Part shown: positions 39,906 to 57,263 of the stretch, one piece after another
Layout of the letters: each line of letters starts with the position of its first letter
Position numbering within the stretch: position 1 is the stretch's first letter
DNA from: Thermacetogenium phaeum DSM 12270
GTDB lineage: Bacteria > Bacillota > DSM-12270 > Thermacetogeniales > Thermacetogeniaceae
DNA: 64,000 bases
Direction of reading: 5' to 3'
NCBI RefSeq assembly: GCF_000305935.1
Contig: NC_018870.1
Location: forward strand, 2,217,001-2,281,000
Position numbers and translations under genes: made by a program
The notes under the pieces: model-generated
Told to the model about the DNA's origin: nothing
Database searches by the model: none
What the model saw: the letters and a program-made list of their open reading frames with translations, nothing else

Positions 39906-39921
39906 ATTTAATAAAAAAACC

Positions 39922-40130
39922 GGTAACGCTGAATTCTCTTCGGAGAAGCGGGGAAACCAATTTTTGGGGTGAATCCCGGCGCTCGAAACGTTCGGCAAGG
40001 CTGTGAGGCACACCTGCGGGCGGTGCCGCCGAATGGGCAGCATTAACAGAGTTGCCGGGTAGGGTTACCTTGCGACCCGAACCCGTCAGCTAACCTCGTA
40101 AGCGTAGGAAGGAAGGCCAGTTCAGGTTTG
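39922..40130 (+). ncRNA. c-di-AMP riboswitch (ydaO/yuaA type)
   Basis: The conserved blocks of the ydaO aptamer appear in order: CGCTGAATTCTCTTCGGAG, GCGGGGAAACCAA, GGGGTGAATCC, then after a variable stem AGGGTTACC, CCGAACCCGTCAGCTAACC and TCGTAAGCG, with GGAAGG at the end. The known ligand of this class is cyclic di-AMP, and binding usually favours termination. A terminator follows 15 bases later. The first downstream gene is glutamate 2,3-aminomutase. Confidence 0.88.
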
Positions 40131-47692: not shown

Positions 47693-47737
47693 GCCATCAT
47701 CCCGCTTAACACTACCCCACCTCGAGGTAGGATTAAG

Positions 47738-47905
47738 ATTTTTCAGGCAGGTCTCCTGACTTCGCAGCTTAACCTCCCCCGGCCCTTCCCGGCATGGTAG
47801 GCCATACCAGTGGTTCCGCCGGGTTTGTATCTGCTTACAGTGGCGGGTCCGTCCGGGAATCTCACCCGGTTCCCTATTCTCCCTTTAAGGGCACCTGAAA
47901 AATTT
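47738..47905 (-). ncRNA. Cobalamin (AdoCbl) riboswitch
   Basis: Minus-strand blocks in order: CAGGTGCCC, GGAGAATAGGGAA, CCGGGTGAGATTCCCGGAC, GGACCCGCCACTGTAA, GCCTACCATGCCGGGAAGG, and the B12-box part GAAGTCAGGAGACCTGCCTG, closed by a P1 stem (TTTTTCAGG/CCTGAAAAAT). It controls bzaA-bzaB, so cobamide level feeds back on lower-ligand synthesis. Confidence 0.95.
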
Positions 47906-47973
47906 GCTATGAAATTTTTTAAATTATTATAATCCATAAGATAAATCTGTCAAGCCCTGATTGCAAATGATGG

Positions 47974-54843: not shown

Positions 54844-55692
54844 ATGCCGTTTGGGGCACATATGTCCATTGCAGGGGGATTCGATCAGGCGATCCGGCGC
54901 GGCCAACAGACCGGGTGCGAAACCGTCCAGATTTTCGTCAAGAACGCCAGCAGATGGCAGGCCAAACCGCTCGACGAAGGGGATATCGAGCGCTTCCGGC
55001 AGGCCCGCCGGGAAACGGGGATCGAGCCGGTGCTGGCCCACAACTCCTACCTTATCAACATCGGCTCACCCGATGAAGACCTGTGGAAAAAGTCCCTCGA
55101 CTCCCTGACGCAGGAAATCGAACGCTGCGCCCTCCTGGAGATCCCTTATCTGGTCATGCATCCGGGGGCGCACTCCGGGGCCGGGGAAGAGGTAGGATTA
55201 AGGCGGATCACCGCCGCCCTCAACGAAGCCTTGAAGAAAACGGAAGAATCGGGAGTGATGATCCTTCTGGAAACCACTGCCGGCCAGGGGTCGGTTCTGG
55301 GTGGAGCTTTCGAACACTTAGCGCAGATCATCGAAGACAGCTTCTTCCCGGAGCGGCTCGGGGTCTGCTTCGACACCTGCCACGCCTTTGCCGCCGGCTA
55401 CGACCTGCGATCCCCGGAAGCCTGCGAGCGGACATTTGCCGAACTGGAAAGTGTTATCGGCATTGCGCGTCTTAAGGCCATCCACCTGAACGACTCCCGC
55501 GGCGGTCTCGGTTCCCGGCGCGACCGCCACGAACACATCGGCATGGGCCAAATCGGCCTCGAAGGCTTCCGCTGGATCGTCAACAACCCGCTCCTCTCCC
55601 ACCTGCCCATGATCCTGGAGACGCCGAAAGGAAAGGACATGAAGGAGGACGTGGAAAACCTGAGAGTGCTCAGAAGCCTTTTAGAAAGATAA
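54844..55692 (+). CDS. nfo: Endonuclease IV (AP endonuclease)
   Basis: 282 residues. TIM barrel with three zinc sites: FGAHMSIAGGF, LAHNSYLINIGSPDEDLWKK, VMHPGAHSGAGEEVGLRRIT, LLETTAGQGSVLGGAFEHLA, GVCFDTCHAFAAGYDLRS, AIHLNDSRGGLGSRRDRHEH and LETPKGKDMKED. All metal ligands I would expect (His, Glu, Asp) are in place. It cuts abasic sites in base-excision repair. GAGGGTG precedes the ATG. The 231 bases upstream hold no gene. Confidence 0.95.
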   Translation: MPFGAHMSIAGGFDQAIRRGQQTGCETVQIFVKNASRWQAKPLDEGDIERFRQARRETGIEPVLAHNSYLINIGSPDEDLWKKSLDSLTQEIERCALLEIPYLVMHPGAHSGAGEEVGLRRITAALNEALKKTEESGVMILLETTAGQGSVLGGAFEHLAQIIEDSFFPERLGVCFDTCHAFAAGYDLRSPEACERTFAELESVIGIARLKAIHLNDSRGGLGSRRDRHEHIGMGQIGLEGFRWIVNNPLLSHLPMILETPKGKDMKEDVENLRVLRSLLER

Positions 55693-55778
55693 AGGGAAAA
55701 CCGGCCTTTCGCAGCCGGTACAAATGGAACCGATTCCAAGGCAGACCCTCACGCCGCCTCCGGCGGCACCAACAGAGT

Positions 55779-56052
55779 ATGAAAATACCCGACGGGTCTA
55801 CCGGCGAGCGACCTATGGAAGGCCGGGTAACAGGACAGGCGAAGCGAGGATGACAGGTCGGGATGCGAGTACAGACACCTCTTGACCTGCGATGGAATGG
55901 ATTTGCTGCGAGGCCAAACGCTGCGTTGACAGAAGCATTTCGCAACTTGTTACGCAGCATCCCAGAGCTGTCCCGAAGCGAGCCGTCGTCCTGTCCGGCC
56001 TGGAATCGGGAGTCGAGCGGTAGACCGGCGGGTGAACTTGATGTATTTTCAT
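55779..56052. repeat. 274-bp imperfect palindromic element before the amidohydrolase gene
   Basis: The ends ATGAAAATAC (55779-55788) and GTATTTTCAT (56043-56052) are exact inverted repeats. Further matched blocks nest inward: GGTCTACCG/CGGTAGACC, GGACAGG/CCTGTCC, GACAG/CTGTC, GGGATGC/GCATCCC. The right end stops a few bases before the AGGAGGTG ribosome site of the next gene. It could be a MITE-like insertion or a large structured RNA; I do not recognise it as a known riboswitch. Confidence 0.7.
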
Positions 56053-56069
56053 GGCAGGAGGTGAAACTG

Positions 56070-57263
56070 TTGCTGGCGCTTGTAAACGGAAAGATTCTTT
56101 CGATGGCGGGCCCCGTTTATGAAAAGGGGATGGTGGTGATCGAAGGACGGAGGATCGCCGCCGTAAGCCCCCATTCAGAACCGCCGGCGGGCGCCCGCCT
56201 CATCGACGTTGCGGGGAAATACGTTCTGCCCGGCTTTATCGACGCCCACACCCACATGGGAATCTACGAAGAGATTTACCGGATCGAGGGGAACGATACC
56301 AACGAAACCAGCGACCCGGTCACCCCTCACCTGCGCGCCCTGGACGCCATCAACATGGAGGATCTGGCCTTTCGAGACGCCTTGGAGGGCGGAGTCACCA
56401 CGGTTATGACCGGTCCGGGAAGCGCCAACGTGATCGGGGGCTTGAGCCTGGTCATGAAAACTTACGGCAGGACGGTCGATGAGGCCGTCGTCAAAAACCC
56501 GGCGGGGCTGAAAGTTGCCCTCGGAGAAAATCCCAAAAGGGTTTACGGCGGCCAGAAGAAATCCCCCATGACCCGGATGTCCACGGCGGCAATCCTGCGG
56601 GAAGCCCTGGTGGCGGCGCACAACTACGCCCTGAAGCTGGAGAAGGGGAAAAACAACCCGGAACAGCAGCCGGACAGAGATCTGAAGCTGGAAGCCCTCC
56701 TGCCGGTGATCAGGGGAGAGATACCCGTCCTGTTGCATGCCCACCGGGTCGACGACATCCTCACCGGGCTCAGGATCACCGACGAGTTCCACCTGAAGGT
56801 AAGCATCCAGCACGGCACGGAAGCCCACAAAATACCGGACGAGCTCGCCCGCAGAGGAATACCGGTAGTGGTAGGGCCTGCCATGGGCAACAGGGCGAAG
56901 GTGGAGCTCAAAGATCGCACCCTGGCAACACCCGGGATCCTCGCCCGCTCAGGCGTACGGGTTGCCCTGATGACCGACCACCCTGTAGTGCCCGGCCAGT
57001 ACCTATCCCTCCTGGCAGCACTGGCGGTGAAAGGGGGAATGGCCGTTGAGGACGCCCTAAAGGCAATCACCATCAACGCGGCGGAGATCCTGGGAGTGGC
57101 CGACCGGGTCGGCAGCCTGGAACCGGGGAAAGACGCCGACGTCATCGTCCTCAGCGGACACCCCCTGGACTGGCTCACCAGAGTGGAACTGGTCATCGTC
57201 AACGGGGAAATCGCCTTTGCCGGCGATTCTTTTGCCGGGATCAGGGGCGGTGAGGAGCGGTGA
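56070..57263 (+). CDS. Amidohydrolase (imidazolonepropionase-like)
   Basis: 397 residues from TTG 56070, six bases after AGGAGGTG; the frame upstream is the palindromic element. Metal-dependent hydrolase: strand-rich start LALVNGKILSMAGPVYEKGM, GKYVLPGFIDAHTHMGIYEE with the HxH ligands, VLLHAHRVDDI, VSIQHGTEAHKIPDELARRG, RVALMTDHPVVPGQYL with the last Asp, and the C-terminal KDADVIVLSGHPLDWLTRVE. Homologues are annotated as imidazolonepropionase-like or peptidase-like; the substrate is unknown. Its TGA overlaps the fdhD GTG. Confidence 0.85.
   Translation: MLALVNGKILSMAGPVYEKGMVVIEGRRIAAVSPHSEPPAGARLIDVAGKYVLPGFIDAHTHMGIYEEIYRIEGNDTNETSDPVTPHLRALDAINMEDLAFRDALEGGVTTVMTGPGSANVIGGLSLVMKTYGRTVDEAVVKNPAGLKVALGENPKRVYGGQKKSPMTRMSTAAILREALVAAHNYALKLEKGKNNPEQQPDRDLKLEALLPVIRGEIPVLLHAHRVDDILTGLRITDEFHLKVSIQHGTEAHKIPDELARRGIPVVVGPAMGNRAKVELKDRTLATPGILARSGVRVALMTDHPVVPGQYLSLLAALAVKGGMAVEDALKAITINAAEILGVADRVGSLEPGKDADVIVLSGHPLDWLTRVELVIVNGEIAFAGDSFAGIRGGEER

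What the first reader, a model, noticed from the sequence alone, without database searches (positions are those of the whole stretch)
55779..56052. 274-bp nested palindromic element pressed against the amidohydrolase ribosome site
Seen: exact terminal repeats ATGAAAATAC/GTATTTTCAT and several nested matching blocks over the whole 274 bases, ending about ten bases before AGGAGGTG. No coding capacity. It resembles a MITE or a large regulatory RNA that I cannot match to a known class; covariation would decide.
Basis: seen in the sequence. Interest (0 to 1): 0.6.

Follow-up and report, generated by a model that had tools for sequence, protein, structure and literature searches.

The report
Short hairpin mobile repeat, lineage-specific insertion
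The 274-base palindrome is the inner part of a 313-base mobile DNA repeat that lacks genes of its own, is present in about 60 copies in this bacterium (Thermacetogenium phaeum), inserts next to sequences that look like its own right end, and only by chance landed beside this gene's ribosome site.

Summary
The palindrome is real and non-random, but its ends are misplaced. It is the core of a 313-bp element (55745-56057): a left hairpin GCCGCC-TCC-GGCGGC with ACCAACAGAG, one long nested hairpin, and a right end TATTTTCATGGCAG. The T. phaeum genome holds about 63 left ends and some 26 near-full-length copies of this subtype, with internally deleted, swapped or near-empty versions between constant ends. 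A sister genus has 19-64 left ends per genome. The orthologous locus in six relatives has the same two genes and no element, so it is not a conserved cis-regulatory RNA. Independent insertion sites in two genera match the element's own right end in register (TTTTCAnGGYAG). Covariation is low among recent copies; compensatory changes between subfamilies support a folded single strand. Most likely it is a non-autonomous element moved in trans by single-strand (HUH-type) cut-and-join. The enzyme was not found: resident IS605 elements have different ends, and IS110 is absent where the element is abundant. The Shine-Dalgarno AGGAGGTG spans the element/host junction.

The parts
55741..55744 (+). GCAG: host-side motif directly left of the insertion (target consensus TTTTCAnGGYAG)
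   Evidence: Position-by-position consensus of 53 T. phaeum and 37 sister-genus non-nested sites
55745..56057 (+). complete mobile element, 313 bp, type A
   Evidence: Conservation boundary among copies; boundaries fixed at interrupted CRISPR repeats and by an empty site
55745..55777 (+). constant left end: ACCCTCAC, hairpin GCCGCC-TCC-GGCGGC (55753-55767), ACCAACAGAG
   Evidence: 63 sites in this genome with at most 3 mismatches, 0 for the reversed control; stem kept through paired changes in a distant genus
55789..56042 (+). internal nested palindrome (type A module); variable between copies: reader positions 63-163 deleted in six copies, replaced by type B or other modules in others
56044..56057 (+). 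constant right end TATTTTCATGGCAG, resembles the insertion target
56056..56063 (+). Shine-Dalgarno AGGAGGTG; its first AG is the last two bases of the element
   Evidence: sequence; boundary
54844..55692 (+). upstream gene, AP endonuclease / endonuclease IV-like (host, not part of the element)
   Evidence: PF01261, E = 5.6e-59
56070..57263 (+). downstream amidohydrolase gene, TTG start (host, not part of the element)
   Evidence: PF01979/PF07969; matches in all 16 genomes searched

Best explanation
This is one copy of a non-autonomous, gene-less mobile repeat with constant ends and exchangeable internal hairpin modules. Shown: multi-copy; mobile (an empty site exists); one-sided insertion immediately 3' of TTTTCAnGGYAG-like sequence; no TSD beyond an ambiguous AG; frequent insertion directly behind another copy's right end. 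Inferred: a trans-acting enzyme of the HUH (IS200/IS605/RAYT-like) kind recognises the left and right hairpins on a folded single strand, cuts after the right-end GGCAG, and joins the element 3' of a target that looks the same. At this locus the insertion separated the AP-endonuclease gene from the amidohydrolase; any effect on that gene is a side effect. Probability of the mobile-element part about 0.95; of the HUH-type mechanism about 0.45.
For: 47 matches in the genome; 63 left ends; sister genus with 64, 62 and 19. Insertion in the middle of identical CRISPR repeats, GTTTCAATTCCTCATAG|GTACGCTGAAAAC, twice. Empty site in a sister species for an in-gene insertion, CTGCTGCAGGGCAG|CTTGAA. Target register identical to the element's right end in two genera: T at -11 and -10, p = 1e-7 and 2e-8 in T. 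phaeum; TTT enrichment p = 1e-6 and 1e-5 in the two genera; last two bases AG in 40/53 and 34/37. Absent from the orthologous locus in six relatives. Compensatory changes between subfamilies, including the left hairpin.
Against: No HUH enzyme with matching ends was found. T. phaeum's IS605 copies have other ends and lie after TTAC; the RAYT of a sister species sits among unrelated repeats; no Y2 hit, but that search had no positive control. A 2-bp AG duplication cannot be excluded. Orientation bias (42 with, 23 against replication) cannot be separated from gene orientation.
Confidence: 0.6

Rival explanations
1. Conventional MITE: a deletion derivative of a DDE insertion sequence, moved through terminal inverted repeats with a target duplication.
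For: Size, multi-copy status, intergenic location and palindromic structure.
Against: True ends are not inverted repeats of each other; no TSD longer than AG at CRISPR repeats; target resembles one end only; no coding relative with these ends among about 63 T. phaeum and some 40 sister-genus copies inspected.
Confidence: 0.12
2. Element moved by a dinucleotide-core recombinase (IS110/IS1111-like or IS607-like), with AG (CT on the other strand) as the core.
For: AG at both junctions; structured non-coding ends; T. phaeum has 13 IS110 matches.
Against: No IS110 match in the three sister genomes where the element is abundant; no target consensus on the right side; none of the IS110 positions carries a left end.
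Confidence: 0.12
3. RNA-borne element: a structured transcript reverse-transcribed and inserted, or a group II intron-like remnant.
For: Strong RNA fold, conserved motifs between stems, excess of copies in the sense of flanking genes (26 against 11 in tandem contexts).
Against: No Rfam match, even at E up to 5; both 5' and 3' truncations occur; right end GGCAG is not an intron boundary (own knowledge).
Confidence: 0.08
4. Cis-regulatory RNA (riboswitch or attenuator) of the amidohydrolase gene.
For: Position directly before the ribosome site; stable fold.
Against: Not present upstream of the orthologous gene in six relatives with the same gene pair; copies lie beside unrelated genes in all orientations; no Rfam family.
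Confidence: 0.03

Closest known systems
BOX elements of Streptococcus pneumoniae (PMC3049150)
   Same: Short, high-copy, non-coding, intergenic, foldable, modular: constant end modules with a variable middle.
   Different: BOX has reported TIRs and TSDs and tandem boxB units; here there are no TIRs at the true ends, no TSD beyond AG, and the middle is an exchangeable or invertible hairpin.
REPs/REPINs with RAYT transposases, GTAG-tagged palindromes (PMC3733652)
   Same: G(T/C)AG near a GC-rich palindrome; movement in trans by an HUH enzyme is the proposed mechanism.
   Different: REPs are 20-40 bp; here the tag is largely host target and the element is up to 313 bp with two dissimilar ends; the text of that survey does not mention Clostridia or Firmicutes; no RAYT found in T. 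phaeum.
IS200/IS605 insertion sequences and their derivatives (PMC6006769, PMC5934647; details from own knowledge)
   Same: Subterminal hairpins, insertion 3' of a short target, no TSD, target similar to the right cleavage site.
   Different: No transposase gene inside; recognised stretch about 12 nt rather than a tetranucleotide; resident IS605 copies use other ends and TTAC.
Bacterial MITEs such as Nezha, NEMIS, RUP (listed in PMC3733652)
   Same: Non-coding, palindromic, about 70-300 bp, many copies.
   Different: Terminal inverted repeats and target duplications are lacking here.

Membership tests
MITE (DDE-type) | terminal inverted repeats | tested here: not met
MITE (DDE-type) | target-site duplication | tested here: not met
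   CRISPR repeats interrupted twice: nothing duplicated beyond an ambiguous AG
MITE (DDE-type) | multi-copy, non-coding, short | tested here: met
IS200/IS605-derived (HUH) element | insertion 3' of a short target, no TSD | tested here: met
   an AG duplication cannot be told from none
IS200/IS605-derived (HUH) element | subterminal hairpins at both ends | tested here: met
   left hairpin with compensatory changes; right end lies at the foot of the long hairpin
IS200/IS605-derived (HUH) element | relative with the same ends encoding a Y1 transposase | tested here: not met
   Y1 genes present but with other ends
REP/REPIN with RAYT | RAYT gene flanked by the repeat | tested here: not met
   no RAYT-like gene among the Y1 hits in T. 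phaeum; no left end in any Y1 locus scanned
REP/REPIN with RAYT | 20-40 bp palindrome tagged with GTAG | tested here: not met
   element is up to 313 bp and the tag is largely host sequence
IS110-type non-autonomous element | IS110 recombinase in genomes rich in copies | tested here: not met
   no match in G002, G009 and G014
BOX-like modular repeat | constant end modules with variable middle | tested here: met
   types A, A-deleted, B, mosaic and minimal forms
BOX-like modular repeat | sequence homology to boxA/boxB/boxC | not tested
   BOX sequences were not fetched
cis-regulatory RNA of the amidohydrolase | conserved upstream of the orthologous gene | tested here: not met
   absent in six relatives

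The most novel reading that the evidence does not exclude
A modular family of gene-less elements whose insertion is guided by similarity of the target to their own right end over about 12 bases, moved by a transposase of an undescribed kind or a domesticated single-strand enzyme acting in trans, with interchangeable internal hairpins that act only as the folding stem.
Probability: 0.25. Interest if true: 0.65.

Novelty: new variant of a known kind. Interest (0 to 1): 0.42.

Why it matters
It turns a supposed regulatory RNA into a lineage-specific insertion, so it should not be annotated as a leader of the amidohydrolase gene. The family itself (about 0.5% of the T. phaeum chromosome by my estimate of 63 copies of 200-300 bp) is not mentioned in the genome paper's text as far as a word search shows. 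The one-sided, self-resembling target and the modular interior make a clean case for finding an unknown or domesticated transposase.

Tried and rejected
Rfam at gathering threshold and at E up to 5: nothing on the element. Phage, plasmid and viral-contig searches: nothing. Resident Y1 (IS605) loci as parents: ends differ. RAYT of the sister genus as parent: flanked by other repeats (only one such locus was read before the script stopped). IS91-like Y2: no hit, but the control was empty too, so uninformative. IS110: no match in the sister genus. Longer autonomous copy between the same ends: none in T. phaeum or in some 40 sister-genus copies, though draft contigs often break at the element. Replication-strand bias as support for single-strand transposition: confounded with gene orientation. 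A second candidate empty site (L116 against L161) aligned too poorly around the junction to use.

Full report
What is there. The window lies in a 2,939,057-bp single-contig genome, the size reported for Thermacetogenium phaeum. A genome search with these 274 bases gave 47 matches, 26 of them covering most of the query at 87-100% identity. Reading outward from the copies, identity continues to 55745 on the left and 56057 on the right, so the element is 313 bp.

Anatomy. Left end: ACCCTCAC or ACCACCAT, then hairpin GCCGCC-NNN-GGCGGC, then ACCAACAGAG. Right end: TATTTTCAnGGCAG. Between them lies one long hairpin. The left end occurs 63 times in this genome with up to three mismatches and the reversed control pattern 0 times. 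Between constant ends the interior varies: type A (about 313 bp), a type A form lacking reader positions 63-163 (six copies), type B of about 270 bp, an A/B mosaic (2066088) and near-empty forms of 59-79 bp. In the sister genus type B interiors also occur inverted and longer nested forms exist.

Mobility and target. Two copies split CRISPR repeats at the same point; the repeat is GTTTCAATTCCTCATAGGTACGCTGAAAAC, and left plus right flanks rebuild it exactly, with at most AG duplicated. An insertion in a coding sequence of one sister species has an intact empty counterpart in another, CTGCTGCAGGGCAG|CTTGAA. Non-nested sites in two genera share, in register, T at about -12 to -9, C at -8, A at -7, G at -4, Y or C at -3 and AG at -2/-1, which is the element's own right end. 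10 of 63 T. phaeum sites and 30 of 67 sister-genus sites lie directly behind another copy's right end. Some of the 'non-nested' sites may be decayed right ends, but the CRISPR and in-gene cases are not.

Distribution. Within the family the left end is abundant in three genomes of one sister genus (64, 62, 19), rare in two others, and absent from the rest searched; one left end is in Desulfotomaculum copahuensis. Sister-genus type A copies fall as one group among T. phaeum copies in 88% of bootstrap trees and are up to 98% identical to the window copy, whereas the amidohydrolase is 74-75% identical in protein between T. phaeum and two genomes of that genus. This suggests, but does not prove, transfer between the genera.

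Why not a regulatory RNA. The AP-endonuclease/amidohydrolase pair is kept in six relatives, with 69-223 nt between the genes and no element. Copies lie beside unrelated genes in every orientation. Covariation among 26 close copies is negligible (3 of 83 pairs). Between divergent subfamilies 6-15 pairs change on both sides and stay paired, but 18-32 pairs break; part of the structure, including the left hairpin, looks maintained. That fits a folded DNA strand as well as an RNA. The counts rest on a structure taken from one sequence and on pairwise mapping through an alignment, so they are indicative only.

How it works. A one-sided target, absence of a duplication and subterminal hairpins are the signature of HUH single-strand transposition (established for IS200/IS605; and own knowledge). 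I infer this mechanism; I did not find the enzyme. Resident Y1 elements use other ends and TTAC, a sister-species RAYT is surrounded by other repeats, and IS110 is missing where the element is most abundant. The enzyme may be a single-copy gene acting in trans, or lost from T. phaeum, whose copies are more diverged.

At this locus. The last AG of the element is the first AG of the Shine-Dalgarno AGGAGGTG (56056-56063). Since the host target also ends in AG, the ribosome site probably predates the insertion (inference).

Noticed in passing
L031 1457-1759 and L032 (T. phaeum 2463465 and 2455399): Two closely similar copies of the element interrupt CRISPR repeats of the same sequence about 8 kb apart; whether these are two insertions or one that was copied was not resolved.
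   Followed up: partly
L154 2300-2420 (Clostridia bacterium DTU068) and L036 left flank (T. phaeum 104245): The same left flanking sequence (TTTCCGGTCnATATACTATAATATTTCTCAGCA) precedes a copy in two different genera, suggesting a shared or transferred insertion.
   Followed up: no
L117, L118, L120 (genome G004): More distant, nested mosaics of the same family with other internal modules.
   Followed up: partly
L138, L155, L186-L203: Type B interior present in inverted orientation between constant ends, as if the long hairpin's loop had flipped by recombination between its arms.
   Followed up: no
window 47729-47913 (-): Cobalamin riboswitch, 128 bits.
   Followed up: no
window 39917-40119 (+): c-di-AMP (ydaO/yuaA) riboswitch, 94 bits.
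   Followed up: no
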